A DNA stretch of 64,000 bases, from NCBI RefSeq assembly GCF_030730875.1, contig NZ_JAVAMA010000008.1, forward strand, positions 1 through 64,000. Direction: 5' to 3'. The translations under genes and the position numbers were made by a program. This document shows positions 40,150 through 56,939 of this stretch, piece by piece. This stretch comes from Sphingomonas sp. DG1-23. Lineage in GTDB: Bacteria; Pseudomonadota; Alphaproteobacteria; Sphingomonadales; Sphingomonadaceae. Under the pieces are notes generated by a model, which had not been told where the DNA came from, made no database searches, and worked only from the letters and a program-made list of their open reading frames with translations. Every line of letters begins with the position of its first letter. The stretch's first letter is position 1.

Positions 40150-40468
40150 GACCCGAAACCCTTGAATCGTGCGAAAAGAAATAGCGGCGCGCACGGGCGC
40201 ACCGCTGTCAGGCCGCGGCGGATGCGCGAGTCCCGCGCAAAAGTCAAGACGGCGCAGGCAGGGCTGGTCGTCCGAGCGAGGCGATGTCGTCTCCGCGGCA
40301 GGCGGGCGAAAGTGTCAAATAACCTTATTGGTACAAAACACTTGACATCGTTACGCTGATCAGGTACTAATACCGAACGCTGAAGAATTGCGAGTCGGGC
40401 CTTTGAGCGCTCGCCGGGCCGGAAACGACGCTGCTGCGCCGGGCCTTTTCGCGTTCGAGGAGAACTAC
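40150..40468. other. Intergenic region between rpmG and the GTA-like cluster
   Basis: 319 bp without a convincing gene. It contains the divergent control signals: a strong sigma-70-type promoter towards the phage-like genes at 40342-40370, and the leader of rpmG. The stretch 40310-40375 is clearly AT-richer than its surroundings. Confidence 0.7.
40342..40370 (+). promoter_or_regulatory. Sigma-70-type promoter driving the GTA-like cluster
   Basis: TTGACA (40342-40347), a 17-bp spacer, then TACTAA (40365-40370). The predicted start is near 40377, some 90 bp before the TerS-like ATG, which has a GAGGAG ribosome site. GGTAC occurs on both sides of the -35 box. Confidence 0.72.
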
Positions 40469-40969
40469 ATGGCATCCGGAACTTTGGTCGTCCGCAAGGG
40501 CGGTGGTGCGCCGCTGCGCGCGCCCAGGGCAGGCTGGACGCCGGCGAAGCGGAATCGCTTTCTGGCGCGGCTGGCGGAGACATTGAACGTCCGCGCGTCG
40601 GTCCGCTCGGTGAATCTCTCCGAAGCGGGGCTCTACAAGCTCCGGCGGCGCGACCCGGCCTTTGCCGCCGCATGGGATCAGACCATCGCCGAAGCCTATG
40701 GCAGGCTGGAGATGCTGCTGCTCGAACGGGCGCTGCTGGGTGGGGGCAGGGTGCGTGCGACGGAAGGTGCGCGCCATCTCGACACGCTCAGCGAGCGCGC
40801 TTTGCTCGCATTGGTCCACCAGCATCGGCCGAATGCGCGCGGTCTGCGTGCGGCCACCGAAAAGGTCGAGGGGAGCAGCGCACTGGAAGAGGAGCTCGGC
40901 GCGCGCGACCGGCTGGTGGCGAAGCTCGCCGAGATCGAGATGCGGCTGGCGGCCGAAGATGACGCGTGA
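40469..40969 (+). CDS. GTA terminase small-subunit-like protein (ORFG1 position)
   Basis: 166 residues. WTPAKRNRFLARLAETLNVR followed by SEAGLYKLRRRDPAFAAAWDQTI is the HTH-type DNA-recognition domain of GTA small terminases. The C-terminal part is a Leu/Glu-rich helix ending AKLAEIEMRLAAEDDA, suited to oligomerisation. GAGGAG precedes ATG 40469. It overlaps the large terminase gene by 11 bp. Expected role: choosing and feeding host DNA to the packaging motor. Confidence 0.82.
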   Translation: MASGTLVVRKGGGAPLRAPRAGWTPAKRNRFLARLAETLNVRASVRSVNLSEAGLYKLRRRDPAFAAAWDQTIAEAYGRLEMLLLERALLGGGRVRATEGARHLDTLSERALLALVHQHRPNARGLRAATEKVEGSSALEEELGARDRLVAKLAEIEMRLAAEDDA

Positions 40970-42278
40970 TGCCGCGAGATCCGTGCCATGGCGCTCGCGG
41001 GCGGAGCACGCCGCGCAGTCCCCCGCGCGCACGGCATGGGTGGCGCAGCTCGAAGATGCCGACGCAGTGCGGCTGGAGAAATTGTGGTGCTGGTGGCGGC
41101 GGCAGGGTCAGACGCCGCCCGACGGCGATTGGCGCATATGGCTGGTCATGGCCGGGCGCGGTTTCGGCAAGACCCGGATGGGCGCCGAATGGGTGCGCGC
41201 GGCGGCCGAGCGCAATCACCGTCTGCGCATCGCTCTGGTGGGCGCCACCGTGGAGGATGTGCGGCGGGTAATGATCGAGGGCGAGAGCGGATTGCTGGCG
41301 ATCGCGGGCTGCCGGATGCGGCCGCGCTGGGAGCCGTCGATCGGCCGGTTGACCTGGCCCGGCGGGGCGCGCGCGGAAGTCTTCTCGGCGAGCGAGCCGG
41401 ACAAGCTGCGCGGCCCGCAGCACCACATCGCCTGGGGCGACGAGATCGGCAAATGGTCCAATGGCGAGGAGACGTGGGACAATCTGATGATGACGTTGCG
41501 CGCGGGCAAGCCGCGGGTGGTGGCGACGACGACGCCGCGGGGCGTGCCGCTGGTACGCCGGCTGTTCGCCGACCCCATGGTGGCGAAGACGCGCGGCGCG
41601 ACGCGGGACAATCGGCACAATCTGGCGGAGAGCTTCCTCGATTCGATGCGAATCTATGCGGGGACGCGGCTGGGACGGCAGGAACTCGAGGGCGAGCTGA
41701 TCGAGGATGTCGCGGGAGCGCTGTGGACGCGCGAAGCGATCGAGCGCAGCCGGGTCCGCGCGGCGCCCGAGCTGGTACGCGCGGTGGTGGGGGTCGATCC
41801 GCCGGCGAGCGCCGAGGGCGACGCCTGCGGAATCGTCGCGGTCGGGCTGGGGCGCGATGGTCGCGGCTATGTGATCGAGGATGCGACGATCGCCGGCGCC
41901 TCGCCCGAGGGCTGGGCGCGCGCGGTGGCGGGGTGCGCGGCGCGGCATCATGCCGAGCGCGTCGTCGCCGAGAAGAATCAGGGCGGCGACATGGTGGCGA
42001 GCGTCTTGCGCGGCGCCGACACCGGACTGCCGGTGCGGCTGGTCCATGCGTCGCGCGGCAAGAGCGCGCGGGCCGAGCCGATCGCCTTGCTCTACGAGGC
42101 CGGGAAAGCGCGGCACGCCGGCACGTTCCCCGAGCTCGAGGATCAATTGTGCGGGCTGCAGGCAGGCGGCGGCTATGAAGGACCGGGCCGCTCGCCCGAC
42201 CGCGCCGATGCGTTGGTATGGGCGATGACCGAATTGATGCTGGGCAAGCGCGGGGCGGCGCGGGTCACGGTGATGTAG
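40959..42278 (+). CDS. GTA/phage terminase large subunit
   Basis: 439 residues. Walker A-like AGRGFGKT lies at about 65-72; the Walker B region IAWGDEIGKW and TTTPRGVPLVRRL (coupling motif) follow. The C-terminal nuclease domain has VVGVDPPASAEGDACGIVAV, VVAEKNQGGD and SPDRADALVWAMTEL, with the acidic residues of the RNase-H-like fold. This is the headful-packaging ATPase/nuclease of RcGTA-type clusters (ORFG2). The gene appears intact. Confidence 0.94.
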   Translation: MTRDAARSVPWRSRAEHAAQSPARTAWVAQLEDADAVRLEKLWCWWRRQGQTPPDGDWRIWLVMAGRGFGKTRMGAEWVRAAAERNHRLRIALVGATVEDVRRVMIEGESGLLAIAGCRMRPRWEPSIGRLTWPGGARAEVFSASEPDKLRGPQHHIAWGDEIGKWSNGEETWDNLMMTLRAGKPRVVATTTPRGVPLVRRLFADPMVAKTRGATRDNRHNLAESFLDSMRIYAGTRLGRQELEGELIEDVAGALWTREAIERSRVRAAPELVRAVVGVDPPASAEGDACGIVAVGLGRDGRGYVIEDATIAGASPEGWARAVAGCAARHHAERVVAEKNQGGDMVASVLRGADTGLPVRLVHASRGKSARAEPIALLYEAGKARHAGTFPELEDQLCGLQAGGGYEGPGRSPDRADALVWAMTELMLGKRGAARVTVM

Positions 42279-42799: not shown

Positions 42800-42893
42800 T
42801 CCGTTTCGGCGCGGTGCCGTTTTATGATTAGGCTCGATCGCAACGAACTGACGAACAGACGGATGAGCGGACCGGGGAAGCGCCGAGGTGACG
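42800..42893 (+). pseudogene. Degenerate fragment of the spermidine-synthase-like gene
   Basis: This stretch aligns by eye with 43563-43661 of the intact gene downstream: both run GG-GTGCCG, CGATCGCAACGAA, then GGATGAGCGGA. In translation it gives MIRLDRNELTNRRMSG against MIVLDRNELMNSRMSG. The frame soon drifts through indels and no full gene is present. It is a remnant of local duplication. Confidence 0.72.
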
Positions 42894-42957
42894 TTCGGTG
42901 TGGGTCGGCGGACTTAGGCTGACAGGCGGCGTCTGCCTCCCGGTCGCTGCGGCCGCG

Positions 42958-43299: not shown

Positions 43300-43506
43300 T
43301 GGACGAGATGCCTTTTGTTTGAACGACGGGCGGGCAATGGCTTCGAAACGGCAATCTGGGCAGTCCGTGAGACCGATTGACCACGGCACGTCGCACGGTG
43401 CAGCAGAATGGTTGCGCAGTCGTTACGTTTGCGAAGGCACGGAGTCGATCGCTCCCAAGGGCCGATCGAGCTTGTGCCGGCGCGCGGCAAAGCGGATAGG
43501 CGGCCG

Positions 43507-44175
43507 ATGGTACCGCGCGAACTGATCGATACGGCTGAAGTGCCCGGCGGCGAGCCGCTGCGGCTGTTCCGGCGGGGTGCCGACTTCATGATCGTGCTCG
43601 ATCGCAACGAATTGATGAACAGCCGGATGAGCGGATCGGAAGAAGCGCTCGCCGAAATGACGATCGATCGACTGCGCGTGCCGGCGCCGCATCTGCTGAT
43701 CGGCGGATACGGCATGGGGTTCACCTTGCGCGCGGCGTTGAAGCGGCTCGATGCGGATGCGCGGGTGACGGTGAGCGAATTGGTGCCGAAGATCATCGAC
43801 TGGGCGCGCGGACCGATGTCCGAGCTGGCGGCGGGGTGCCTCGACGACCGGCGCGTGGAGGTGGTGCTCGACGATGTCGGAGCGATGATCCGGCACGGGC
43901 GCGGCGGCTATGATGCGATCCTGCTCGATGTCGACAATGGTCCGGACGGGCTGACTCGGCCGGGCAATGACGGGCTCTATTCGGATCGCGGGCTGGCCGC
44001 GGCGCGCGCGGCGTTGCGCACCGGCGGGATATTGGCGGTGTGGTCGGCGGCGCCCGATGCGGCGTTCGCGCGGCGGCTGCGCGAGGCCGATTTCAGTGTC
44101 GAGGAAGTCGGCGTCAAGGCGCGCAGCAACGGCAAGGGGCCGCGCCACGTGATCTGGTTCGCGACGCGGCGGTAG
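43507..44175 (+). CDS. Spermidine/spermine synthase-like methyltransferase-fold protein
   Basis: 222 residues. PHLLIGGYGMGFTLRAALKR is the nucleotide-binding loop (GGYGMG), with VSELVPKIIDW, then YDAILLDVDNGPDGLTRPGN and GLYSDRGLAAARAALRTGGI, as in spermidine-synthase-like proteins of proteobacteria. The N-terminal tetramerisation part is short. It may transfer a propylamine or methyl group, but the substrate is unknown. It sits inside the GTA-like cluster and is not a phage gene. Confidence 0.85.
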   Translation: MVPRELIDTAEVPGGEPLRLFRRGADFMIVLDRNELMNSRMSGSEEALAEMTIDRLRVPAPHLLIGGYGMGFTLRAALKRLDADARVTVSELVPKIIDWARGPMSELAAGCLDDRRVEVVLDDVGAMIRHGRGGYDAILLDVDNGPDGLTRPGNDGLYSDRGLAAARAALRTGGILAVWSAAPDAAFARRLREADFSVEEVGVKARSNGKGPRHVIWFATRR

Positions 44176-44307: not shown

Positions 44308-44325
44308 ATGTTTCAGGAGACAGGC

Positions 44326-45435
44326 ATGAAATGGTTCGGACGTAAGTCGGCCGGGCGCGAGGGCGCGCGGCCGGCGCTGGCGGGCGGCGGCGGCATCGCC
44401 GGCTTCGGCGACTGGCCGCGCAGCTACGAGGCGCAGGTGCGCGAAGGCTATTGCCACAATCCGGTGGCGCAGCGCGCCGTCAAACTGATCAGCGAGAGTG
44501 TCGGATCGGCGCCGCTCAAGGCGAGCGACCCCGCATTGGCGGCGCTGGCGATCGCGCGATCGAGCGGACAGGTGCTGATCGAGACGCTGGCGGCGCAATT
44601 GCTGCTCCACGGCAATGCCTGGGTGCAGATCCTGACCGACAGCCATGGCGCGGTGCGCGAATTGTTCGCGCTCCGGCCCGAGCGGATGACGGTCGAGGCC
44701 GATGCCGGCGGCTGGCCGGTGGCGTATCGCTATCGGGTCGGCGCGAATGTCAGCCGGCTGGCGGCCGAAGACGCGGCGGGGCGGCCGGCGGTTGCGCATA
44801 TCCGGACGTTCAACCCGGTCGACGATCATTATGGGCTCGGCTGCCTCGGCGCCGCGGCGGGGGCGGTGGCGATCCACAATGCCGCGACGCGCTGGAACAA
44901 GGCGCTGCTCGACAATGCGGCGCGGCCCTCGGGAGCTTTGGTCTATGACGTCGGCGACGGCGGGGTGCTGAGCCCCGACCAGTTCGCGCGGGTCAAAGGC
45001 GAGCTCGAGGCGGGGTTTGCCGGCGCCGCCAATGCGGGGCGGCCGATGCTGCTCGAAGGCGGGCTCAAATGGCAGGCGATGAGCATGACGCCGGCCGATA
45101 TGGATTTCGTCGGGCTGAAGGCGGCGGCGGCGCGCGAGATCGCGCTCGCCTTCGGGGTGCCGCCGATGCTGATGGGACTGCCGGGCGACACCGCCTACGC
45201 CAATTACCGCGAGGCCAATCGGGCGCTGTGGCGGCTGGCGATCCTGCCGATTGCGGACACCATCCTTGCGGGGCTTTCGCAAGCGCTGCGGGGCTGGTTT
45301 CCCGAGGCGGCGCTGTCGATCGATCTCGATCGGGTGCCGGCGCTGGCGGAAGATCGCGAGCGGCTATGGCTGCAGGCGAGCGCGGCGAGCTTTCTGAGCG
45401 ACGACGAGAAACGAGCTATGGTCGGGCTGGCGTGA
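44326..45435 (+). CDS. GTA/HK97-type portal protein (ORFG3)
   Basis: 369 residues from ATG 44326 (AGGAGA upstream). NPVAQRAVKLISESVGSAPL, LLLHGNAWVQIL, HIRTFNPVDDHYGLGCLGAA, and EIALAFGVPPMLMGLPGDTA followed by YANYREANRALWR, are the standard landmarks of HK97-family portals. Twelve copies would form the DNA-entry vertex. The gene appears intact. Confidence 0.94.
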   Translation: MKWFGRKSAGREGARPALAGGGGIAGFGDWPRSYEAQVREGYCHNPVAQRAVKLISESVGSAPLKASDPALAALAIARSSGQVLIETLAAQLLLHGNAWVQILTDSHGAVRELFALRPERMTVEADAGGWPVAYRYRVGANVSRLAAEDAAGRPAVAHIRTFNPVDDHYGLGCLGAAAGAVAIHNAATRWNKALLDNAARPSGALVYDVGDGGVLSPDQFARVKGELEAGFAGAANAGRPMLLEGGLKWQAMSMTPADMDFVGLKAAAAREIALAFGVPPMLMGLPGDTAYANYREANRALWRLAILPIADTILAGLSQALRGWFPEAALSIDLDRVPALAEDRERLWLQASAASFLSDDEKRAMVGLA

Positions 45436-45589: not shown

Positions 45590-45670
45590 GTACGCTGACT
45601 AGGCGCTGCCGCGCGGGCGGGCAAATCGAAGTTCGGACGGGGGTTCGGGCGGGGTTTTCAGGAGAGTGTG

Positions 45671-45979
45671 ATGCGTAACGAAACGGTGCTCGCGCAACTG
45701 ATCGAGCAGGCGAAGGAGGATGGTGCCGACGTGGCGACGCTGCGCGCGATCGCCGAGGAATCGGGCGAGCTGAGCGCGCAGCGGGCGCTGGCGCGGCTGG
45801 GGCTCGAGGATGTCGGCGCGGCGAAGGACATGGCCGAGTTGCGCGAGCTGCTGGGGGCATGGCGCGATGCCAAGCGCTCGGCGTTCAAGGCGGCCTTCTC
45901 ATGGGCGGGGCGGATGCTCGCCGCGCTCGTGCTGGTCGGGCTGGCCGTGAAACTCGGGTTCCCGGGGTGGCTCAAATGA
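45671..45979 (+). CDS. DUF6127-like small membrane protein (ORFG3.5 position)
   Basis: 102 residues from ATG 45671 (a GTG one codon upstream is possible; CAGGAGAG precedes). A helical N-terminal part (LIEQAKEDGADVATLRAIAEESGE ends the first helix pair) is followed by one transmembrane segment near the C-terminus (MLAALVLVGLAVKLGFPGWL). Small proteins of this kind sit between portal and protease in GTA clusters. It overlaps the protease start by 4 bp. Confidence 0.75.
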   Translation: MRNETVLAQLIEQAKEDGADVATLRAIAEESGELSAQRALARLGLEDVGAAKDMAELRELLGAWRDAKRSAFKAAFSWAGRMLAALVLVGLAVKLGFPGWLK

Positions 45980-46353
45980 GCGTGCGCTTCGCCGGCTATG
46001 CCGCAGTGTTCGACGTGCCCGATCGCGGCGGCGACGTGGTGCGGCGCGGGGCTTTCCGGTCGGCGGGGCCGGTGCCCCTGCTGTGGCAGCATGGCGGGAC
46101 GGCGGTCGGCATGATCGAGGCTTTGGCCGAGGATCGGCGCGGGCTGCGGGTGATCGGGCGGGTCGAGACGCCCGAACTCGCCGCGGCGGTGGCGAAGGGC
46201 GCAGTGACCGGATTGTCGTTCGGCTATCGGGTGACCGAGGCGCGCGGCGCGACACGGCGCGAGATCAAGGGGCTCGAATTGCTCGAGATCAGCCTCGTGG
46301 CGAGCCCGATGCAGCCGCTGGCGCGGGTACATGCAGTGACGCCGAACGCATGA
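45976..46353 (+). CDS. HK97-family prohead protease (ORFG4)
   Basis: 125 residues, on the short side for the family. MSVRFAGYAAVFDVPDRGGD, catalytic His in LLWQHGG, catalytic Ser in GAVTGLSFGYRV, and ELLEISLVASPMQPLA are present. It normally trims the capsid N-terminus during head maturation. ATGA overlap with the preceding gene. The last 65 bp overlap the convergent lgt gene. Confidence 0.92.
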   Translation: MSVRFAGYAAVFDVPDRGGDVVRRGAFRSAGPVPLLWQHGGTAVGMIEALAEDRRGLRVIGRVETPELAAAVAKGAVTGLSFGYRVTEARGATRREIKGLELLEISLVASPMQPLARVHAVTPNA

Positions 46354-47134
46354 GCAGCCAGACGCCTGCGGCGATCATCGGGACGCACAAGGTCTGGCCC
46401 ATGGTCAGGCCCCAGGCGAGATGTTCGAGCCCGGCATCGGGCTGGCGCGTGAATTCGAGGAAGAAACGGGCCGTGCCGTAGAGGAGCAGCGCGGTGCCGG
46501 CGAGGCGGCCGGGGCGGTTGCGCGCATCGGTGCGCCAGAACATCCACACCAGGACGAGCATCATCAGTCCGCCTTCGAGTGCGGCCTCGTAGAGCTGGCT
46601 GGGGTGGCGCGGGACGCCGTCATGGCTGCCCGGGAAGATCATCGCCCAGGGGAGGCTCGACGGGCGGCCCCAGAGCTCGCCGTTCACGAAATTGGCGAGA
46701 CGGACGAGGATCATGCCGAACGGTGCGGCGCAGGCGACATAATCATAGATGCGGACGAGATCGAGGCGGTTGCGGCGGGCGAACCACCACAAGGCGACGA
46801 GTACGCCGATCAGCCCGCCATGGAACGACATGCCGCCGTGCCAGAGCTCGAGCACCTTCCAGGGGCGGAGCCAGATGCCAGGCTGGTAGAACAGGCAATA
46901 GCCCAGCCGCCCGCCGAGGATCACGCCGAGCCCGACCCAGGTCAGCGCATCGTCGACCTGCGCGGGAGTCATCGGCGCGCCGGGCCGGGCGACGAGGCGG
47001 CGGAGATACCACCAGCCGAGCGCCAGCATCGCGAGATAGCTGAGCGCGTACCAGCGCAGCACGAACGGGCCGCCAAGGTCGAGCGCGACCGGCGAGAGGC
47101 CGAGATCGGCGAAGTGGATCGGATGGGCGGGCAT
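46289..47134 (-). CDS. lgt: Prolipoprotein diacylglyceryl transferase Lgt
   Basis: 281 residues, seven transmembrane helices. Signature residues occur in GRLGYCLFY, HGGMSFHGGLIG, RLANFVNGELWGRP and HPSQLYEA. Lgt transfers diacylglycerol from phosphatidylglycerol to the lipobox Cys and is generally essential in Gram-negatives. It lies antisense inside the GTA-like cluster, between protease and capsid genes, and overlaps the protease end by 65 bp. This is an odd place for a housekeeping gene. Confidence 0.96.
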   Translation of the reverse strand: MPAHPIHFADLGLSPVALDLGGPFVLRWYALSYLAMLALGWWYLRRLVARPGAPMTPAQVDDALTWVGLGVILGGRLGYCLFYQPGIWLRPWKVLELWHGGMSFHGGLIGVLVALWWFARRNRLDLVRIYDYVACAAPFGMILVRLANFVNGELWGRPSSLPWAMIFPGSHDGVPRHPSQLYEAALEGGLMMLVLVWMFWRTDARNRPGRLAGTALLLYGTARFFLEFTRQPDAGLEHLAWGLTMGQTLCVPMIAAGVWLLMRSASLHVPAPAAASGSPRG

Positions 47135-47230: not shown

Positions 47231-48286
47231 ATGGACGAAGTGACGACGGACGCGCTCGAGGCGAGCTTCGAGGCAGTGGAAAGGGCGGGGCTGCCGCCGG
47301 TGCGGCCGATGCTGGCGGGCGGGCGGCCTCTGGGCAGCGCCGCGTTCGAGGGTTTCCTGCGCACCGGCGGCGGGTTCGAGATGAAGGCGCTGTCGGGCGC
47401 CAGCGACGCCGCGGGCGGCTATGCGGTGCCCGAGGAGATCGACGGCCGGATCGACGCGACGCTCAAGGCGGTCTCGCCGATCCGCGCGATCGCCAATGTC
47501 GTGAAGGTTGGATCGAGCGGGTATCGCAAATTGGTGACCAGCGGCGGATTCGAGAGCGGCTAGGCGGCCGAGACCGCGGCCCGGCCCGAAACCGACACGC
47601 CGGTGTTCAACGAAGTCGCGCCGCCGATGGGCGACCTCTATGCCAATCCGGCGGCGAGCCAGGCGATGCTCGACGACGCCGCGTTCGACGTCGAGGAATG
47701 GCTGGCCGCCGAAGTCGCGCGCGAGTTCGCCGCGGCCGAGGGGGCGGCGTTCGTCAGCGGCAACGGCACCAACAAGCCCAGGGGCTTCCTCGCCACGCCG
47801 ACCGCCTCGACCGGGGATGCGACGCGCGCGTTCGGGACGCTGCAAACCGTGGCGACCGGCGCGGCGGGAGCGTTCGCGGCCAATCCCGAGGAGAAACTGA
47901 TCGACCTGGTCCAGAGCCTGCGCGCGCCGTACCGGCAGGGCGCGAGCTGGGTGATGAACAGCGCGACGCTGGCGCGGATCCGCAAGTTCAAGACCAGCGA
48001 CGGGGCGTTCCTGTGGGTGCCGAGCCTCGCCGCGGGGCAGCCGGCGACCCTGCTCGGCTATCCGGTGGTCGAGGCCGAGGACATGCCCGACATCGCCGCC
48101 AATGCGCTGGCGATCGCCTTCGGCAACTTCAAGGCGGGCTATCTGATCGCCGAGCGGGGCGAGACGCAGGTGCTGCGCGATCCGTACAGCAACAAGCCGT
48201 TCGTGCATTTCTATGCGACCAAGCGGGTGGGGGGCATGGTGAGCAATTCGGAGGCGATCAAGCTGCTCAAGTTCGCGGTTTCCTGA
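47231..48286 (+). pseudogene. GTA major capsid protein (ORFG5) interrupted by an in-frame amber codon
   Basis: A single frame encodes an HK97-fold capsid: KALSGASDAAGGYAVPEEID, SPIRAIANVVKVGSSGYRKL, VSGNGTNKPRGFLATPTAST, LIDLVQSLRAPYRQGASWVM, FKAGYLIAERGETQVLRDPY. After FESG, the codon at 47561-47563 is TAG, and the same frame continues AAETAARPETDTPVFNE without any other stop to 48286. Family members usually have SGW(V/A)AETAARPET here, so TGG-to-TAG is the simplest explanation. Only 110 of 351 residues would be made without suppression. The N-terminal delta/scaffold region (about 50 residues) is also short. A sequencing error is the main alternative. Confidence 0.9.
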
Positions 48287-48294
48287 GCCTGGCC

Positions 48295-48425
48295 GATCCT
48301 CCCTCGCGAAGCGGGGGAGGTGGCACGCCAGGCGTGACGGAAGGGGCGTGGTCGCAAGCGTTCGCGCGTGGAAATGCCCCTCCACCCCTTCGTGATCCCT
48401 CTCCCCCGCTGCGCGAGGGAGGATC
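48295..48425. repeat. REP-like palindrome between capsid and connector genes
   Basis: The ends are near-perfect inverted repeats (GATCCTCCCTCGCG-A-AGCGGGGGA on the left, its complement with one difference on the right). The middle carries GGAAGGGGCG and ATGCCCCTCCA segments that also pair. The unit fills the whole intergenic gap. Confidence 0.85.
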
Positions 48426-48443
48426 CCAGACGAGGAGATTTCG

Positions 48444-48998
48444 ATGCTTGCTCCGCCCTTTCCGGCGGCGGCGATCGCGGCTGCGCGCGATGCTGCCAGG
48501 CTTTATTTGCGGATCGCGGGCGCGGCCGAGGATGCGTCGCTCGAAACCCATGCCGCGACGGCGCTCGCTCTGTGCGAGGCGTTCACCGGCCGGGCGCTGA
48601 TCGTCCGCGCGTGGCAGACGGTGCTGCCCGCGCACGGCGCATGGCAACGGCTTCCCGCCGCGCCGGTGACGACGATCGACAGCGTCGAGGGACTCGGCAT
48701 GTCGGGCAATGCCTTCGCGCTGCCGGTCGACGCCTATGCGATCGATATCGATGCGGTGGGCGACGGGTGGGTGCGCGGCAGCCCCGCGATCGCCGCCGGA
48801 CGCATCCGCATCGGCTATTCGGCCGGGCTCGCCGCGGACTGGGCCGCGCTGCCGGCGCCGCTGGCGCAGGGCATGGTGTTGCTCGCGACGCATCTGTTCG
48901 AGGCGCGCGCGAGCGGCGGCGCGCCGCCGGCCGCGGTGGCGGCCTTGTGGCGGCCGTGGCGGCGGGTGCGGCTCGAGGCCGCAAGGCGATCGGCATGA
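48444..48998 (+). CDS. GTA head-tail connector protein (ORFG6, gp6-like)
   Basis: 184 residues from ATG 48444 (GAGGAGATTTCG upstream). AARLYLRIAGAAEDASLETH followed by ALALCEAFTGRALIVRAWQT, and VTTIDSVEG, match the HK97 gp6-like/phiE125 gp8-like adaptor family. It would sit below the portal. The gene appears intact. Confidence 0.85.
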   Translation: MLAPPFPAAAIAAARDAARLYLRIAGAAEDASLETHAATALALCEAFTGRALIVRAWQTVLPAHGAWQRLPAAPVTTIDSVEGLGMSGNAFALPVDAYAIDIDAVGDGWVRGSPAIAAGRIRIGYSAGLAADWAALPAPLAQGMVLLATHLFEARASGGAPPAAVAALWRPWRRVRLEAARRSA

Positions 48999-49201
48999 AA
49001 GGCCTGCAGGCGCGCGCCGAAGAGGCCGGCGAACATGCCGCGACGCAGGCGGCGTTGCGATTGCGCGACGCCGCGCGCGCGGCATTGCCCGGACTTTCGG
49101 TGGAAGCCGAGGCCGGGCGGGTGGTGATTTCGGGGCGCGAATTGCGGCGGCGATGGCTGCGCGACGCCGTGCTCCGCTGGCCGGGAGGGTGGCTCCGATG
49201 A
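48995..49201 (+). CDS. Short GTA protein at the ORFG7 position
   Basis: 68 residues, overlapping both neighbours by 4 bp. MKGLQARAEEAGEHAATQAA, then RLRDAARAALPGLSVEAEAG and VISGRELRRRW. It resembles a shortened HK97 gp10-like joining protein (helix, then a strand pair), but I cannot assign it firmly. Its length is well below the roughly 110 residues usual for that position. Confidence 0.7.
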   Translation: MKGLQARAEEAGEHAATQAALRLRDAARAALPGLSVEAEAGRVVISGRELRRRWLRDAVLRWPGGWLR

Positions 49202-49596
49202 GCGCGCATGCTGTGCTGACCGAGGCAGTGGAAGCGGCGCTCGGCACGCATCCCGGGCTGGGGATCGCCCTCAACGGCGTGTTCGACAGCGTGCCGCGGC
49301 GCGCGGTGCGGCCCTATGCCGTGGTCGAGGATGCGTTGCTCGTGGACTGGAGCACCAAGGACATGATCGGTCGCGAGGGCCGGCTGACGGTCGGGCTGTT
49401 CGCCGGCGAGGACCGCAAGCGGCTGCGCGCGCTCGCCGACCAGATCGGCGCGGCGATCGCGGGATTGCCGCGCGAGCTGGGCGAGGGGTGGCGGATCGCC
49501 AGCCTCGCCTTTTTGCGCAGCCGGATATTCGAGGAAGGCCCCGGGCTGTGCGCGGCGGTGATCGAGTTCCGGGTGCGGATGCTGCAGGCGAATTAG
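49198..49596 (+). CDS. DUF3168 tail-completion protein (ORFG8)
   Basis: 132 residues. VLTEAVEAALGTHPGLGIAL, YAVVEDALLVDWSTKD and RIASLAFLRSRIF are typical of DUF3168, which caps the tail tube and joins it to the head. ATGA overlap with the preceding gene. Confidence 0.88.
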   Translation: MSAHAVLTEAVEAALGTHPGLGIALNGVFDSVPRRAVRPYAVVEDALLVDWSTKDMIGREGRLTVGLFAGEDRKRLRALADQIGAAIAGLPRELGEGWRIASLAFLRSRIFEEGPGLCAAVIEFRVRMLQAN

Positions 49597-49606
49597 GAGA
49601 GAGAAG

Positions 49607-50014
49607 ATGGCGGCGGAGAAGGGTAGCGCGTTCCTGCTCAAGGTGGGCAATGGCGGATCGCCGGTGAGCTTCATCACGGTGGCGGGGCTCAGGACCACGC
49701 AGCTGAGCGTCAATGGCGAGGCGGTGGTGATCACTTCGAAAGACTCGGGCGGCTGGCGCGAATTGCTGTCGGGCGCCGGGGTGCGATCGGTGAGCGTGTC
49801 GGGCGCCGGCGTGTTCACCGGATCGGCGGCGGAGAACCGGGTGAAGGCCAACGCGCTGGCCGGGGTGATCGACGATTACCGGCTGAGCTTCGAGAGTGGC
49901 GAGAGCCTGATCGGGCGCTTCCTGGTGACGCGGCTCGATTATGCCGGGGATTTCAACGGCGAGCGCAGCTACACGCTGAGCCTCGAGAGCTCGGGCGCGG
50001 TGGTTTCGGCATGA
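49607..50014 (+). CDS. Major tail tube protein (ORFG9)
   Basis: 135 residues, TP901-1/GTA tail-tube type: KGSAFLLKVGNGGSPVSFIT, then TVAGLRTTQLSVNGEAVVIT, SGGWRELLSGAGVRSVSVSG, DYRLSFESGE and TRLDYAGDFNGERSYTLSLE. It forms hexameric rings of the non-contractile tail. AGGAGAGAAG precedes the start. The gene is intact. Confidence 0.92.
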   Translation: MAAEKGSAFLLKVGNGGSPVSFITVAGLRTTQLSVNGEAVVITSKDSGGWRELLSGAGVRSVSVSGAGVFTGSAAENRVKANALAGVIDDYRLSFESGESLIGRFLVTRLDYAGDFNGERSYTLSLESSGAVVSA

Positions 50015-50382
50015 GCGGGATGGATGGTCTCGGTGCGACACCGACCCACCCCCAACCCCTCCCTGGAAGGGAGGGGAGTTCTAACCCGGCGCGGGGCGAG
50101 GCGGCGTTGCGCGTCGGCGGGGAGATGCTGGTGCTGCGGCCGAGCTTTGCGGCGCTGGTGGCGGCCGAGAGCGAGCTGGGGCCGTTGTTCGCCCTGGTCG
50201 AGCGCGCCGCCGAAGGGCGGCTGGGGCTAAGCGAGATGGTCGGGCTGTTCTGGCATTGCCTGCGCGAACGGCCCGAGGCGCTGACCCGCGACGGTTTTGC
50301 CGAGGCGGTGACCGGGTGTGGGCTGGCGGCGAACACGCCGGTGCTGAAGGTCCTGCTCGGGCAGATATTGGCGGGGCGGTGA
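50011..50382 (+). CDS. GTA family protein (ORFG10) with a REP-derived N-terminal insertion
   Basis: 123 residues. The core EAALRVGGEMLVLRPSFAAL, then VERAAEGRLGLSEMVGLFWH, matches the GTA gp10 (tail-assembly-type) family, which usually begins only a few residues before NPARGEA. Here MSGMDGLGATPTHPQPLPGR and EGSS are added, encoded by the REP-like sequence at 50041-50080. The frame is preserved. It overlaps the genes on both sides. Confidence 0.85.
   Translation: MSGMDGLGATPTHPQPLPGREGSSNPARGEAALRVGGEMLVLRPSFAALVAAESELGPLFALVERAAEGRLGLSEMVGLFWHCLRERPEALTRDGFAEAVTGCGLAANTPVLKVLLGQILAGR
50041..50080. repeat. REP-like element inside the ORFG10-like gene
   Basis: CCCAACCCCTCCC-TGGA-AGGGAGGGG hairpin in the 5' part of the coding region. 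It encodes THPQPLPGREG and is of the same family as the thiC insertion at 37543-37578. Confidence 0.8.
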
Positions 50383-50720
50383 TGGGCGGGCAATTCCTCC
50401 CCGGAGCGGGGAGGGGGACCGTCGCCGAAGGCGATGGTGGAGGGGACCCCGCTTTCCGCCCGGCTTCGCGCTCGCGGATGGCGGGCCCCCTCCACCAGCC
50501 TGCGGCTGCTCCCCCTCCCCGTTCCGGGGAGGAATTTATGGAGGCCGCGGTCCGGCTCGCCGGAATGGCGGGGGTCTTGTTCGGCTGGACGCCCGAAATT
50601 TTCTGGAACGCGACTCCGGCCGAACTGGCGGCGCTGGTGCGGGCGTTGGCGGGGGACGCGGTGCCGCCGCCCGGCGCGGGCGAGATCGCGCGGCTCAAGG
50701 AGCTATTTCCCGATGGATGA
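50382..50720 (+). CDS. Phage tail assembly chaperone (ORFG10.1/TAC) with a 47-codon REP insertion
   Basis: 112 residues from ATG 50382 (TGATG overlap). The last 60 residues (MEAAVRLAGMAGVLFGWTPE, then FWNATPAELAALVRALAGD, IARLKELFPDG) are the whole conserved domain. Residues 6-52 are encoded by a palindromic element. If 50396-50536 (141 bp) is removed, the gene reads M-G-G-Q-F-M-E-A-A-V, the usual start for the family. An internal ATG at 50538, with GAGGAATTT before it, could also be used, avoiding the insertion. Confidence 0.85.
   Translation: MGGQFLPGAGRGTVAEGDGGGDPAFRPASRSRMAGPLHQPAAAPPPRSGEEFMEAAVRLAGMAGVLFGWTPEIFWNATPAELAALVRALAGDAVPPPGAGEIARLKELFPDG
50392..50536. repeat. REP-like element with 26-bp terminal inverted repeats inserted in the TAC gene
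   Basis: Left arm 50392-50417 and right arm 50511-50536 are reverse complements with one difference. AATT lies at both outer ends and could be a 4-bp target duplication. An inner pair (GGTGGAGGGG and CCCCCTCCACC) also folds. No transposase is encoded, consistent with a non-autonomous element mobilised in trans. Confidence 0.88.
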
Positions 50721-51279
50721 AGAGATCGAACGCTTGATCATCGGCGTGCGCGCCGACACCCGCGGCTTTGCGCGCGACGTCGCCGAGATGCGCGGGCAGA
50801 TCGAGGGCCCGCTCGAGGCCGGCGCCGAGCGTGCCGGACGCGCGATCGAAAATGCGCTGTTGCGCGCGGTGCGCACCGGCAAATTCGGCTTCGAGGACCT
50901 GCGCAGGATCGCACTGGCCGCGATGGACGAGATCGCCGCGGCGGCGCTGCGCCAGGGACTGGCGGCATTGGGCGGCGGTGGCGGTTCGGGCGGCGGGGGA
51001 TTGCTGGGCGCGCTCGTCGGGCTGCTCGGCGGGGCGCCGGGGCGTGCGACCGGCGGCCCGGTGAGCCCCGGCCGGCCTTATTGGGTCGGTGAGCGCGGAC
51101 CCGAATTGTTCGTGCCGGCGAGCGCAGGCGCGGTGGCGGCACCCGTCGCGGGCGTGTCGCGCGAGGTGCGGGTGGCGATCACGATCAACGCCGGTGGGGG
51201 CGAGGCGCCGCGGGCGCTCGCGCAGTCGAGCCGGCAAGTGGCGCGCGCGGTGAAAGCGGCTCTGGCGGGGATGGAATAG
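50713..51279 (+). CDS. Minor tail / tape-measure-like protein (ORFG11)
   Basis: 188 residues. The N-terminal EEIERLIIGVRADTRGFARD followed by FGFEDLRRIALAAMDEIAAA, a Gly-rich hydrophobic stretch (GGGGSGGGGLLGALVGLLGG) and GRPYWVGERGPELFVPASAG are diagnostic of the GTA tail tape-measure family. This is a short version, consistent with the short tail of GTA particles. It overlaps the TAC gene by 8 bp. Confidence 0.9.
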   Translation: MDEEIERLIIGVRADTRGFARDVAEMRGQIEGPLEAGAERAGRAIENALLRAVRTGKFGFEDLRRIALAAMDEIAAAALRQGLAALGGGGGSGGGGLLGALVGLLGGAPGRATGGPVSPGRPYWVGERGPELFVPASAGAVAAPVAGVSREVRVAITINAGGGEAPRALAQSSRQVARAVKAALAGME

Positions 51280-51339: not shown

Positions 51340-53592
51340 ATGGCGCATTGGCTGGCTTCCGGACGGCGCGGGCAGGCGGTGGGCGTGATCTCGCGGTTCG
51401 ATCCCGTGTTCTGGACGGTCAATTTTCCGCGGCCGATGATGGCGAGCGTCGTGACCATCGCGTCCGATGCGCTGCGTGTGGACGCGGTGTTCTATCGCCA
51501 GGACGATCTCGCGGGGCTGATCTGGGAGGCCGAGGACCGGCACGACCACCCGCTGTTGCGCTACGACACCGATCGCGACTTCCGCGGATGCCGACTGCGG
51601 TTTCGCTGGCGCTCGTCGGGGGTGCTCGCGCTCGATCAGGTCAGCGGGCCGGTGCTCACGATCGAGGGGCGCGACGCGGCGGGGATCCCGCGCGCCTGGT
51701 ATGTGCGGCTGTGGAACTATGCCAGCGGCACGGCCGAGGACGCGATCGTCTCGATCGACTTCGCCACCGTGCAGGGCGGCTATCTGCTGCCCGGCGAGGC
51801 CGATCCGGTGTTCGCGGGCGATGTCGACCGGATGTTCGTGTCGCTGGTCGCCAAGGGTTATTCGGGCGAGGACGCAGCGCTGGCGGTGCCGGCCGAGGCA
51901 TGGGTCGAGCTGAGCCAGATCGCCTGTGAGGGACCCGGATCGGTGCTGACGACCGGCGACGTGGTGGTGCCCGAACATTGCCTGCAGATCGCCAACGGCT
52001 ATGACGATTGCTATCATCTGACTCCGGCGCGCGTGCTCCGCAACGCGCTCCATCTCGGCTATCGCGGGAACATCCTGCATTATGTCGGGATGAGCCATTA
52101 TTTCCGGCTCGAGCCCAATTCGGGCGGCTATTATGCCAGCCTGACCGGGGGCACGCTCAACGTGGCGTGCGCGGCATGGCATGCGGATTTCGCGGCGCGT
52201 GCGAAAGCGCTCGACTATGACGTGATCTGGTCGCTCTCCTACGAGCTGCTCGATCAGCATTGCTGGAACGACTGGAAGCAACGCGCGGCCGACGGTTCGC
52301 CCGGCCTGACCGGGTGGAGCCCACCTTCGGCCTTGCTGTCGCCGGCGCATGCGGGGGCAATGTATTATCTGCGGGTGGTGGCGCTGGCGTTCGTCGGGAT
52401 CGCGCAGACCGCAGGACTCGCGGTCAAGTTCCAGATCGGCGAGCCATGGTGGTGGGTGATGCCCGACGGGCGGCTGTGCATCCACGACGCCGCCGCGAAG
52501 GCCGAGCTCGACGATCCGGCGGAGCAGAATGTCCGGGGCGCGGTCGACGCTGCGGTACTCGATGCCGCCGGCGCGTTGCTCGCCGCCTCGACACTGGCGC
52601 TGCGCGACGTGGTGCGTTGGGCGCCGGGGGCCCAGGTGTTGCTGCTCGCCTATCTGCCGACGGTGCTCGATCGCGCAATGCCCGAGCTTCAGCGCGCCAA
52701 CCTGCCGATCGGCTGGGCGGCGCCGGCGTTCGATATACTCCAGCTCGAAGATTATGACTGGGCAGCGGCGGGCAACGCGGCGGCGAGCGCCAAGGGCGTG
52801 GCGCTTGCCGAGGCGCGGCTCGGCTATGACCCCGCGGATCAGCATTATCTCGCGGGGTTCGTGCTCAAGCCCGAGGACAAAGCGCAATGGGCGCCGATCG
52901 CCGCGGCAGCGGCGCGGGGACGCGCGCGGGGCGTGGCGGCGACCTTCGTCTGGGCGCTGCCCCAAGTGTTGCGCGACGGCTTCGTGCATTTCGAGCAGGA
53001 GGACGAGATGGACGCGTTCGACGACGTGCTGTTCCCGCTCGCGCTGGGGCGCGAGGCCGAAGTGGCGCCCGAGGTCTCGACGGCGATCGTGACCAGCGCG
53101 GGCGGGCGCGAGAGCCGCAATGCCGAATGGGCCGAGGCGCGGTTGCGCTACGATGTCGGCCCCGGGGTGCGATCCGAGGCGGACATCGCCGCGCTGATCG
53201 GCTTTTTCCGGGCGCGGATGGGGCCGGCGCGGGGATTCCGGCTGCGCGATCCGTTCGACGCCTCGGGCGAGGACGAAGTGCTCGGGGTGGGCGACGGGAC
53301 CGAGGCGCGCTTCCAGTTGGTCAAGCGCTATGGCGAGGTGGTGCGGCGGATCACCCGGCCGGTGAATGGCAGCGTGCGGGTGGCGGTGGACGGGCTGGAG
53401 ACCACGGGATTTACGCTCGGGCCGGGCGGGGTGGTGACGCTCGACGCGCCGCCGGACGCGGGAGCGGCGGTGACCGCGCGCTTCGATTTCGACGTGCCGG
53501 TGCGGTTCGCCGAGGATCGGCTGAGCGTGAACCGGACGACCTGGCTGGCGGGGGCGGCGGCTTCGGTGCCGCTGGTCGAGGTGCGCGAATGA
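51340..53592 (+). CDS. DUF2460 tail protein fused to a large N-terminal domain (ORFG12)
   Basis: 750 residues. Residues from about 550 (FDDVLFPLALGREAEVAPEV, SEADIAALIGFFRARMGPAR, FRLRDPFD, VKRYGEVVRRITRPVNGSVR) are the DUF2460 distal-tail domain, which alone makes up ORFG12 in Rhodobacter-type GTAs. The first 540 residues are extra: a jelly-roll-like segment (about 40-190, VSGPVLTIEGRDAAGIPRAW) and a barrel-like segment with YDVIWSLSYELLDQHCWNDW and KFQIGEPWWWVM, which looks like a carbohydrate-active or binding fold. It could help bind or cut cell-surface glycan. The gene is intact. Confidence 0.85.
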   Translation: MAHWLASGRRGQAVGVISRFDPVFWTVNFPRPMMASVVTIASDALRVDAVFYRQDDLAGLIWEAEDRHDHPLLRYDTDRDFRGCRLRFRWRSSGVLALDQVSGPVLTIEGRDAAGIPRAWYVRLWNYASGTAEDAIVSIDFATVQGGYLLPGEADPVFAGDVDRMFVSLVAKGYSGEDAALAVPAEAWVELSQIACEGPGSVLTTGDVVVPEHCLQIANGYDDCYHLTPARVLRNALHLGYRGNILHYVGMSHYFRLEPNSGGYYASLTGGTLNVACAAWHADFAARAKALDYDVIWSLSYELLDQHCWNDWKQRAADGSPGLTGWSPPSALLSPAHAGAMYYLRVVALAFVGIAQTAGLAVKFQIGEPWWWVMPDGRLCIHDAAAKAELDDPAEQNVRGAVDAAVLDAAGALLAASTLALRDVVRWAPGAQVLLLAYLPTVLDRAMPELQRANLPIGWAAPAFDILQLEDYDWAAAGNAAASAKGVALAEARLGYDPADQHYLAGFVLKPEDKAQWAPIAAAAARGRARGVAATFVWALPQVLRDGFVHFEQEDEMDAFDDVLFPLALGREAEVAPEVSTAIVTSAGGRESRNAEWAEARLRYDVGPGVRSEADIAALIGFFRARMGPARGFRLRDPFDASGEDEVLGVGDGTEARFQLVKRYGEVVRRITRPVNGSVRVAVDGLETTGFTLGPGGVVTLDAPPDAGAAVTARFDFDVPVRFAEDRLSVNRTTWLAGAAASVPLVEVRE

Positions 53593-54395
53593 GCTGGCTC
53601 GACGGCGACCTCACTACATTGGCTTTGTGCTGGCGGATCGACCGGCGCGACGGCGTGACGATCGGCATCACCGCGCATGATCGCGATCTGGCGATCGACG
53701 GACTGGTCTATCGCGCCGCGCCGGGGATGACGCCGAGCGCGATCAACCGCAGCGCGCGCCTCGATGCCGACAGCATGGACGTGTCCGGCGCGCTGACCAG
53801 CAGCGCGATCGGGGAGGCCGATCTGCTCGCCGGACGCTGGGACGGAGCGCGGGTCATGCTGTTCGCGGTCGATTGGCGCGATCCCGGGGCGCGGGTGCCG
53901 CTGGGCGAAGGGACGATCGGTGCGATCGAGACGCGCGGAGGCATGCTGACCGCCGAACTGCGCGGGGTTTCGGCGGAGCTCGAGCGGCCGGTGGTCGAGG
54001 AGACGTCGCCCGAATGCCGTGCCGCGTTCGGCGACCGACGCTGCCGCGTCGCGATGGCGGGACGGCGGCGGTTCGCGCGGGTGACCGGCGCGGAGGAGGC
54101 AGTGCTGACCCTGGATGCGGAGGAGCCGGTTGCGAACGCCTATGGGGGTGGGCGGCTGCGCTGGTTCAGAGGCGCGAATTCGGGGCTGGAGGATGCGATT
54201 GCCCGCTCCGAGGGCGCGATGGTGACGCTGCGGCGGCCGCCGCGGTTCGCCGCCGTCGGCGCGCTGGTCGAGATCGAGCAGGGTTGCGACAAGCGTCTCG
54301 CGACCTGTTCGGCGCGGTTCGGCAATGCCGCCAATTTCCGCGGCGAGCCGTGGTTGCCGGGGATCGACCTGCTGACGCGCTATCCGGGCGCATGA
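53589..54395 (+). CDS. DUF2163 tail protein (ORFG13)
   Basis: 268 residues. LCWRIDRRDGVTIGITAHDR begins DUF2163, and the C-terminal phage_BR0599-type domain has CRAAFGDRRCRVAMAG with later GCDKRLATCSARFGNAANFR and FRGEPWLPG. Conserved Cys (ECR, RCR, GCD, TCS) may bind an Fe-S cluster or metal in the tail hub. ATGA overlaps at both ends. Confidence 0.92.
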   Translation: MSWLDGDLTTLALCWRIDRRDGVTIGITAHDRDLAIDGLVYRAAPGMTPSAINRSARLDADSMDVSGALTSSAIGEADLLAGRWDGARVMLFAVDWRDPGARVPLGEGTIGAIETRGGMLTAELRGVSAELERPVVEETSPECRAAFGDRRCRVAMAGRRRFARVTGAEEAVLTLDAEEPVANAYGGGRLRWFRGANSGLEDAIARSEGAMVTLRRPPRFAAVGALVEIEQGCDKRLATCSARFGNAANFRGEPWLPGIDLLTRYPGA

Positions 54396-54775
54396 ATGCC
54401 GGCGCGCGCGTCGTCGAGGCGGCGCGGGGGGCGATCGGGGCACGGTTTCGCCTGCACGGGCGCGATCCTGCGACGGGACTCGATTGCGTCGGGCTGGTGG
54501 CGTTGGCGCTGAACGTAGCGGTGCCGCGCGGATATGCGTTGCGCTATGACGACGTGGCGCATGTCGTGCGGGTGATCGAGGCGGCGGGGCTGGTGCCGGC
54601 CGCCGATGTCCGTGCCGGCGACCTCGTGCTGCTGCGCGCCGGGCCGGGGCAGCTGCATTTCGCGATCCAGACCGGGACCGGGATGATCCACGCCGACGCG
54701 ATGCTGCGGCGCGTGGTCGAGCGGCGCGAGCTGGTCTGGCCGGTGATCGGCCGCTGGCGCACAGCAGGAGACTGA
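54392..54775 (+). CDS. NlpC/P60 cell-wall peptidase (ORFG14)
   Basis: 127 residues. The catalytic Cys is in GLDCVGLVALAL and the His in GQLHFAIQTG, with MIHADAMLRRVVE after it. It is a tail-associated murein endopeptidase used to pass the cell wall. The gene is intact. Confidence 0.92.
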   Translation: MNAGARVVEAARGAIGARFRLHGRDPATGLDCVGLVALALNVAVPRGYALRYDDVAHVVRVIEAAGLVPAADVRAGDLVLLRAGPGQLHFAIQTGTGMIHADAMLRRVVERRELVWPVIGRWRTAGD

Positions 54776-54776
54776 C

Positions 54777-56939
54777 ATGGCGACGATGGTATTGACGGTC
54801 GCCGGCAGCCTGGTCGGCGGACCGGTGGGTGGCGCGATCGGCGCATTGGCCGGCAACGTCATCGACCGCGAAGTGCTGTTCAGGCCCAAGGGGCGCGAAG
54901 GCCCGAGGCTGACCGAGCTGCGGGTACAGACATCTTCCTACGGTACCCAGATCCCGAGAATCTTCGGGACGATGCGCGTGGCGGGATCGGTGATCTGGGC
55001 GACCGACCTGATCGAGCATCGCAGCAAGCAGGGCGGCGGCAAGGGGCGGCCGAGCACGACCAGTTTCAGCTATACGGCGTCGTTCGCGGTGGCGCTCTCG
55101 GCGCGACCGATCCACGGCGTCGGGCGGATCTGGGCCGACGGCAAGCTGCTGCGCGGGGCGGCCGGCGACTTCAAGGCCCGCACCGGGTTCCGGATCCACG
55201 CCGGCAGCGAGGATCAGGCGCCCGACCCGCTGATCGCGTCGGTCGAGGGGGCGGCGCTGACGCCGGCGCATCGCGGGATCGCTTATGTGGTGTTCGAGGA
55301 TCTCGAGCTCGCCGATTTCGGCAATCGCATTCCGTCGCTGAGCTTCGAAGTGATCGCCGATCCCGCACCGATCGCGGCCGGCGCGATCCTCGCCGAGCTG
55401 GGCGAGGGCGCCGTGGCCAGTCCCGAAAATACGCTTGCGCTTGCCGGCTTCGCCGCTGCGGGTGCGAGCGTGCGTGCCGCCATGGAGACGCTGGCCGGTG
55501 CCACTGGCGGCTGGTTCCGCGCCGAAGCGGATGCGCTGACGCTGCTGGACGGCCCCGGCACGGCGATTGCGTTGACCGATGTCGGAGCGGGTGCGGAACG
55601 GGATATTCGAGGGCAGCGCGATATCGCGGCGGCCGAGACTGCCCCGCGGACGCTGACGCTCGCGCACTACGAGCCGGCGCGCGATTATCAGGCAGGAATT
55701 CAGCGGGCAGTGCGTCCGGGCGCGGGCATGCGCGAGGCGCGGATCGAACTTGCCGCGGCGATCGACGCGTCGGCCGCGAAGGCGATCGCCGAGGCTGCGC
55801 TGACCCGGCTCGACATGGAGCGCGAGCGGCGAACGCTGGCGCTACCCTTGGGGGCGCTGGCGATCCGACCCGGCGAGCGGGTGACGATCGCGGGTGCCCC
55901 GGGGCTCTGGCGAGTCGACCGGTGGCGGCTGGAAGACATGGTCGTGCTGCTCGAGTGCGTCGCAGTCGCCTCGGGGGCATTGCCGGGAGCCGCGAGCGGC
56001 GGGCGGGTGCTGTCCGCACCCGATCTCGCAATGGGCGAGACCGTGGTGCACGCATTCGAATTGCCCCCGCTGGGGAGCCTCGCCGCCACGCCACGGCTCG
56101 CGATCGCCGCGGGCGGGACGGGACCCGGCTGGCGAAGCGCGGCGCTCCTCCTGAGCACCGACGAAGGCGCGAGCTGGACGCCCGCCGGGACGACTGCAAT
56201 GCCCGCGGTGCTGGGACGGCTGGTGACGCCGCCGGGCGTGGCGCCCGCGCATCTCGCCGACCGCATCCACGTGATCGTCGTCGAACTGGCAAACGGGGCC
56301 ATGCTGCTGCACGACGCCGACGATTCGGGGCTGGCGGAGGGATCGAACCTCGCGATGGTCGGTGACGAATTGCTCCAGTTCGCGCACGCAGTCCCGCTCG
56401 GCGGGCGGTTATGGGCATTGAGCCGATTGTGGCGCGGCCGCCGCGGGACCGAAGCGGCGATCGGCAGCCAGACAGCCGGCGATCGCTTCGTACTGGTCGA
56501 AGCCGAGTCGCTGGTCGCGATCGATCTGCCGACCCAGCCGACGCGCGCGCAGGTGCTCGCCCAGGGCGTGAGCGATGCGGAAGCGGCGCAGGCGCAGGCG
56601 CAGGTGCGCGGCGTCTCGCTGGTGCCGCCGGCGCCGGTTCACCTCCGTGCTCGCGCCCTGCTCGACGGGACGACCGAGATCCGCTGGATACGCCGCAGCC
56701 GCAATGGCTGGGACTGGATCGACGGCGTAGACGCCCCTCTCGGCGAAGAAGGCGAACGCTATCAGCTGACCTTGACGCTCGCAGATGGCGGTGACCGCAT
56801 GATCGCAGCCGACGTGCCGCACGTCGTGCTGAATGTCGAAGAGCGACTGGCGGTCGTCGCCATCGCTGTCCGCCAGATCGGAGCGCATGGGCTGTCGCTG
56901 CCTGCGGTGCTCGCGCTGCCACTCCCGGGAGAAGGTTGA
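54777..56939 (+). CDS. GTA host-specificity / baseplate megatron-like protein (ORFG15)
   Basis: 720 residues. SSYGTQIPRIFGTMRVAGSV, STTSFSYTASFAVALSARPI and IHGVGRIWADGKLLR identify the GTA phage-tail (TIM-barrel-less, gpJ-like) host-interaction protein. A typical Gly-rich membrane-active N-terminus (GSLVGGPVGGAIGALAGNVI) is present. GTA relatives are often about 1300 residues, with a GTA_TIM domain, so this is a shorter sphingomonad form. The gene is intact. Confidence 0.88.
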   Translation: MATMVLTVAGSLVGGPVGGAIGALAGNVIDREVLFRPKGREGPRLTELRVQTSSYGTQIPRIFGTMRVAGSVIWATDLIEHRSKQGGGKGRPSTTSFSYTASFAVALSARPIHGVGRIWADGKLLRGAAGDFKARTGFRIHAGSEDQAPDPLIASVEGAALTPAHRGIAYVVFEDLELADFGNRIPSLSFEVIADPAPIAAGAILAELGEGAVASPENTLALAGFAAAGASVRAAMETLAGATGGWFRAEADALTLLDGPGTAIALTDVGAGAERDIRGQRDIAAAETAPRTLTLAHYEPARDYQAGIQRAVRPGAGMREARIELAAAIDASAAKAIAEAALTRLDMERERRTLALPLGALAIRPGERVTIAGAPGLWRVDRWRLEDMVVLLECVAVASGALPGAASGGRVLSAPDLAMGETVVHAFELPPLGSLAATPRLAIAAGGTGPGWRSAALLLSTDEGASWTPAGTTAMPAVLGRLVTPPGVAPAHLADRIHVIVVELANGAMLLHDADDSGLAEGSNLAMVGDELLQFAHAVPLGGRLWALSRLWRGRRGTEAAIGSQTAGDRFVLVEAESLVAIDLPTQPTRAQVLAQGVSDAEAAQAQAQVRGVSLVPPAPVHLRARALLDGTTEIRWIRRSRNGWDWIDGVDAPLGEEGERYQLTLTLADGGDRMIAADVPHVVLNVEERLAVVAIAVRQIGAHGLSLPAVLALPLPGEG

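What the first reader, a model, noticed from the sequence alone, without database searches (positions are those of the whole stretch)
47231..48286. Amber codon in the major capsid gene of an otherwise ordered GTA-like cluster
The capsid frame is open over 351 codons except for one TAG at 47561-47563, exactly where relatives have Trp in SGW-x-AETAARPET. One TGG-to-TAG change would abolish particle formation unless an amber suppressor exists or the base is a sequencing error. The genes on either side (terminase, portal, protease, tail genes) remain open, which suggests recent inactivation or recoding.
Basis: partly seen in the sequence, partly recalled or inferred. Interest (0 to 1): 0.85.

Follow-up and report, generated by a model that had tools for sequence, protein, structure and literature searches.

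The report
Nonsense-mutated capsid gene in intact GTA
In one Sphingomonas genome the capsid gene of an otherwise intact gene transfer agent carries one premature stop codon where every relative examined has tryptophan, which most likely means that this strain recently lost the ability to make the particles and not that it reads the stop codon as an amino acid.

Summary
In detail: the HK97-type capsid frame 47231-48286 is open except for TAG at 47561-47563, where 192 of 192 related loci (164 distinct DNA cores) have TGG. The other GTA genes compared are open, and the capsid shows no excess of amino-acid changes, so the lesion looks recent. Recoding is not supported: TAG ends 138 of 608 coding-like frames in 855 kb of this genome, release factor 1 is present, and the scan found no second interrupted gene. 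One tRNA-like gene has CUA in its loop, but the loop has 8 bases and belongs to a mobile cassette with highly variable loops whose protein gene is broken here. A second Sphingomonas genome (G022) has a like lesion at another codon, without such a tRNA. TAG is also the stop most easily reached from this gene's codons (61 of 81 one-base routes). Verdict: most likely an ordinary, recent nonsense inactivation; a base error cannot be excluded without reads. The gene-plus-odd-tRNA cassette met on the way is the stranger thing.

The parts
47231..48286 (+). GTA major capsid gene (g5, HK97 fold), interrupted
   Evidence: homologue of the RcGTA capsid 6tb9 by way of its relative L003
47561..47563 (+). 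in-frame TAG at codon 111; TGG in 192 of 192 related loci
47231..47560 (+). translatable part before the TAG, 110 aa of 351
47564..48286 (+). part after the TAG, 240 aa, conserved; a GTG codon at 47603 opens an ORF in the same frame
40388..40969 (+). g1, small-terminase-like by position (weakly conserved; no NCBIfam match)
40662..42278 (+). g2, large terminase (ORF bounds; true start probably further in)
   Evidence: PF03237, PF17289
42360..42755 (-). small ORF inside the cluster, not found in 16 relatives' clusters
43408..44175 (+). spermidine-synthase-like gene; found in the clusters of 11 of 16 relatives
44308..45435 (+). g3, portal
45668..45979 (+). g3.5
45976..46353 (+). g4, prohead protease
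46289..47134 (-). one of two lgt copies (prolipoprotein diacylglyceryl transferase), antisense between g4 and the capsid gene
48444..48998 (+). g6, head-tail connector
48995..49201 (+). g7-like small gene
49204..49596 (+). g8 (start approximate)
49607..50014 (+). g9, major tail protein
50011..50382 (+). g10
50695..51279 (+). g11-like tail gene (start approximate)
51340..53592 (+). g12, distal tail protein; residues 559-749 match the Rcc01695 family
53589..54395 (+). g13, baseplate hub
54392..54775 (+). g14
54777..56939 (+). g15, baseplate 'megatron' protein (below the curated score)

Best explanation
A recent point mutation turned the Trp codon at position 111 of the GTA major capsid gene into the stop codon UAG. 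Translation ends after 110 residues, before most of the HK97 fold. Since a GTA head needs many copies of this protein (recalled), the strain should make no particles although the rest of the cluster is open (inference). Shown: the codon, its conservation in relatives, the open neighbours, a release factor 1 gene, and ordinary use of TAG. Inferred: that RF1 ends translation there, the loss of particles, and that the change is present in living cells.
For: TGG in 192 of 192 loci. Nearest relative L292 has the same 27-base context but for this base. The window's GTA genes carry no internal stop and are collinear with those of relatives. G000-only changes in the capsid are 6 synonymous to 2 non-synonymous besides the TAG, not out of line with other lineages, so decay has barely begun. 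TAG ends 138 of 608 coding-like frames in 855 kb, and inspection of 10 frames that go on coding left only the capsid. RF1 scores above its curated cut-off. A like case is G022: its GTA genes found (g7 not seen) show no stop except a Gln codon of the capsid that is TAG. 61 of 81 one-base routes to a stop in a relative's capsid gene lead to TAG.
Against: The rest of the cluster has not decayed, which is also what suppression or a sequencing error would give. The genome holds one tRNA-like gene with CUA in its loop. A CTA pattern matched only G000 and one other of 201 genus genomes, and in that other ARAGORN sees no such tRNA, so the coincidence of a CUA loop and a capsid TAG in one genome is notable. 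No strain of the same species and no reads could be compared.
Confidence: 0.83

Rival explanations
1. Sequencing or assembly error: the strain really has TGG.
For: Draft genome of 18 contigs; no reads at hand; a single base differs from the nearest relative in that context; the rest of the cluster is open.
Against: The scan of 855 kb left no other coding frame with a real in-frame stop, so errors that create stops are rare in this assembly; completeness 100%, contamination 0.53%.
Confidence: 0.1
2. Amber suppression: the orphan tRNA-like gene at G000 C17:182394-182466 (8-base loop CTCTAGGT) reads UAG and lets some full-length capsid be made.
For: A U followed by CUA in the loop; Rfam tRNA score 50.7 bits, over the cut-off; same contig as the GTA; no second such tRNA found with one CTA pattern in 200 other genus genomes (the pattern fits only tRNAs with a GAGC D-stem).
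Against: Loop of 8 bases and a C-C mismatch in the anticodon stem. It is one of 27 CTC-type loops of a cassette family whose later bases vary widely, so CUA is not what the family is about. The cassette's protein gene is broken twice here. TAG is not avoided. G022 has a capsid TAG but no such tRNA among its 44 tRNA hits.
Confidence: 0.04
3. Leaky or programmed readthrough of UAG by ordinary near-cognate tRNAs gives enough capsid.
For: None specific; the gene after the TAG is open.
Against: 192 of 192 relatives have no stop there, so nothing conserved is programmed; a head needs many copies (recalled).
Confidence: 0.02

Closest known systems
RcGTA (Rhodobacter capsulatus gene transfer agent), capsid 6tb9/6tsu
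   Same: Homologous capsid with the same Trp; terminase, portal, protease, capsid, tail and baseplate genes present in the GTA order (the RcGTA order itself is recalled)
   Different: Capsid stopped at codon 111; an lgt copy and minus-strand ORFs lie inside the cluster
Capsid gene of genome G022 (same genus)
   Same: Single TAG in the capsid of a GTA cluster whose other found genes are open
   Different: The stop replaces Gln at codon 227, not Trp111; independent event
Degraded GTA clusters of G102 and G180
   Same: Capsid with an in-frame TAG
   Different: g6-g15 not found in the stretches read; the capsid C-terminus is joined to another frame; in G180 the TAG lies at that junction

Membership tests
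RcGTA-type gene transfer agent cluster | Collinear homologues of terminase, portal, protease, capsid, tail and baseplate genes | tested here: met
RcGTA-type gene transfer agent cluster | Kept across the genus and not a stray prophage | tested here: met
   capsid match in 163 of 201 genus genomes; a minority of these are weak matches, perhaps to other phage capsids
RcGTA-type gene transfer agent cluster | Makes particles that carry host DNA | not testable with these tools
   needs culture work
Nonsense-inactivated gene (pseudogene) | Premature stop where relatives have a sense codon | tested here: met
Nonsense-inactivated gene (pseudogene) | No working suppressor or reassigned code | tested here: inconclusive
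   TAG is an ordinary terminator and RF1 is present; the odd CUA-loop tRNA was not tested for function
Natural amber suppressor tRNA | CUA anticodon in a 7-base loop on a sound cloverleaf | tested here: not met
   8-base loop, C-C mismatch in the anticodon stem
Reassigned amber code | TAG rare as terminator and frequent inside genes | tested here: not met
   138 of 608 coding-like ends are TAG; one real internal TAG found in 855 kb

The most novel reading that the evidence does not exclude
The orphan tRNA with an 8-base CUA loop, left by a mobile gene-plus-tRNA cassette, reads UAG in this strain. GTA capsid production has thereby become conditional on a remnant of a mobile element.
Probability: 0.04. 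Interest if true: 0.85.

Novelty: new member of a known kind. Interest (0 to 1): 0.27.

Why it matters
It gives a clean natural case, with a second one in G022, of a GTA cluster kept whole while its capsid gene is knocked out by one base. Such strains could test what the rest of the cluster does without particles, for instance whether inducing it is still costly or lethal. It also shows that 'intact cluster' does not mean 'producer' when GTAs are counted from genomes. As a case of recoding it carries no weight on present evidence.

Tried and rejected
Genome-wide reassignment of TAG was tested by a scan for coding-like frames that continue after a stop (40 codons scored on each side, so stops near a gene's start are not seen). 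Of 10 candidates in 855 kb, only the capsid is real. By my reading of the translations the other nine are neighbouring genes with their own start close by, or antisense frames.

A dedicated suppressor tRNA was tested by ARAGORN on the loci of all 48 tRNA hits of the genome (the two partial hits at contig ends gave none, and no tRNA-Ile and no Ala-TGC were called, so the set is not quite complete), by DNA similarity in the genus (16 of 201 match; 15 are other genomes; of the 9 of these 15 loci that I scanned, 8 hold tRNA-Asn and 1 no tRNA), and by a CTA pattern (2 of 201). It was rejected as the main explanation once the cassette family was seen.

Quadruplet decoding by the CUAG loop was considered and rejected. 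The loop would pair with CUAG, which in the capsid gene does not start at a codon boundary, and the two breaks in the cassette's own gene are in the -1 sense, not +1.

The idea that capsid stops are oddly biased to TAG (4 of 4 among the listed rows) was dropped because 61 of 81 one-base routes in a relative's gene lead to TAG. Three mid-gene stops being all TAG would occur with chance 0.43 at equal mutation rates.

A strain of the same species was sought in viral contigs and genome contigs; the closest, L292, is about 91% identical over the capsid gene. Searches of papers for GTA with pseudogene, or with nonsense mutation, gave no listing whose title or abstract start names such a case; I did not read those papers.

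The cassette protein gave no match in Pfam or NCBIfam, only a weak PADLOC row (E 0.0094, one of three proteins), no solved structure by sequence and none with E up to 0.001 by fold. PHROGs was not searched.

Full report
What is there. The window is C17:1-64000 of a 4.59 Mb draft genome of 18 contigs; the titles of the nearest relatives name Sphingomonas. Frame 47231-48286 encodes an HK97-type major capsid protein interrupted by TAG at codon 111. The cluster runs from g1 (about 40.4 kb) to the baseplate gene ending at 56939. The window's copies carry no internal stop and are collinear with those of 16 relatives. The g1 homologue is weak and was not found in L150, g7 was found in 7 of 16, g12-g15 were not found in L155, and in some loci g15 is cut by the end of the stretch.

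Conservation of the site. Every locus examined has TGG there: 192 of 192, with 164 distinct DNA cores. The set has 31 loci from the genus search (L003-L031, L079, L080), 80 from named genome contigs, 80 from viral contigs, and G102 (L374). The nearest, L292, shares the 27-base context apart from this base. The solved R. capsulatus GTA capsid also has Trp there, in SGWASETAA.

How old. Counting codons where G000 alone differs from six agreeing relatives, the capsid (both parts) has 6 synonymous and 2 other changes besides the TAG; six gene segments together have 56 and 16, against 86:25, 53:15, 50:14, 42:13, 28:8 and 30:1 in the six relatives. The numbers are small, but there is no sign of long decay.

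How unusual. In 201 genus genomes, 163 match a full-length capsid. Among the rows listed (the listing was cut), four carry an in-frame stop, all TAG: G000, G022, G102 and G180. In G022 the GTA genes found (g7 not seen) are open and one Gln codon of the capsid is TAG. In G102 and G180 no g6-g15 was found in the 19.9 kb read; the capsid end runs into another frame, and G180's TAG lies at that junction. In 80 named loci, other GTA genes show a mid-gene stop once (L153 g12, TAA) and one close to a gene's end (L159 g10, TAG). A further 24 stops lie within the first 33 or last 6 residues of the query and I took them as gene ends. Five frameshift-like breaks occur, three of them in L208. None of the 80 viral-contig capsids has a stop. 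TAG is expected: 61 of 81 one-base routes lead to it.

Recoding tested. In 855 kb of the genome (C17, C11 and 100 kb of C13) 608 coding-like frames end in TGA 388, TAG 138 and TAA 82 times; these are frames scored by codon use, not called genes. Ten go on coding after the stop, and by inspection only the capsid is truly interrupted. RF1 is present above its curated cut-off. ARAGORN on the loci of all 48 tRNA hits finds ordinary tRNAs plus two odd tRNA-like genes with four-base 'anticodons' ctag and ctgc at C17:182394-182466 and 182513-182585.

The odd tRNAs. They follow a gene that is broken twice in the -1 sense. Intact homologues (437-471 residues) lie on plasmids of Hymenobacter, Streptomyces and Miltoncostaea (7 records, 6 of them read) and on nine viral contigs up to 436 kb long. 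Loops were extracted by script from 16 loci, G000 included. Of 31 rows, 27 in 15 loci begin CTC after a GG-CC stem end, with 12 loops of 8, 9 of 9, 5 of 7 and 1 of 6 bases; Miltoncostaea gave none, and the other 4 rows are ordinary tRNAs or artefacts. CTCTA occurs in two, one in G000 and one in Hymenobacter. Cautions: loop length depends on where the stem is drawn; ARAGORN gives ordinary names to the 7-base loops and to some of the 9-base ones; the four Streptomyces loops are identical. As a control the script read 5 of 8 host tRNA loci, all with 7 bases, one of them also beginning CTC. CUA is therefore one variant among many. The protein was found in 1 of 397 family genomes, and a three-row alignment in 398 genomes of the phylum found G000 and one marginal match, so the cassette is rare there.

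Surroundings. One of two lgt copies (57% identical to the one on contig C10) lies antisense between protease and capsid. Of 156 relatives' loci where both flanks were found, only L160 has lgt there, and its capsid is open. In L292 g4 and capsid lie about 110 bases apart by my estimate, against 877 in the window. Minus-strand ORFs sit between terminase and the spermidine-synthase-like gene and were not found in 16 relatives. Such insertions may hinder transcription of the operon (inference), but gaps over 500 bases between g4 and capsid occur in 29 of 156 loci.

Conclusion. The simplest reading is a recent nonsense mutation that ends particle production in this strain. Papers: PMC9836097 was read in passages (its introduction says that the GTA genes are conserved to varying degrees in about half of the members of Rhizobiales, Sphingomonadales and Caulobacterales). 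The start of the abstract of PMC3875453 says that readthrough by suppressor tRNAs had not been observed in Caulobacter crescentus. Others were seen only as listings with abstract starts. That a GTA head needs hundreds of capsid copies is recalled, not from a call.

Noticed in passing
G000 C17:about 181021-182585 (L085 8507-10087), outside the window; L271-L273, L276-L278, L283-L291: Mobile cassette of an uncharacterised protein (437-471 aa, intact elsewhere, broken in G000) beside tRNA-like genes with abnormal anticodon loops that begin CTC (27 loops in 15 of 16 loci, 6-9 bases, later bases highly variable). Found on plasmids of Bacteroidota and Actinomycetota and on nine viral contigs; no Pfam or NCBIfam match, no PDB fold match with E up to 0.001; the predicted fold (pLDDT 82) resembles uncharacterised proteins of Edafosvirus and Yasminevirus, giant viruses by recollection. 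Function unknown; the listings of the paper searches did not name it.
   Followed up: partly
window 46289-47134 (-): One of two lgt copies, antisense between GTA protease and capsid genes; at the same place in L160 only, of 156 relatives' loci.
   Followed up: partly
window 42360-43389 (-): Minus-strand ORFs between terminase and the spermidine-synthase-like gene, not found in the clusters of 16 relatives.
   Followed up: partly
L374 (G102) and L375 (G180): In two GTA clusters g6-g15 were not found and the capsid C-terminus runs into the same kind of downstream frame (DUF2793-like by recollection), as if by similar deletions.
   Followed up: no
window 48287-48440, 50030-50090, 50393-50530: Palindromic repeat-like segments (CCTCCCTC...GAGGGAGG type), seen by eye, between and inside GTA genes g5-g11, one apparently coding within g10.
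   Followed up: no
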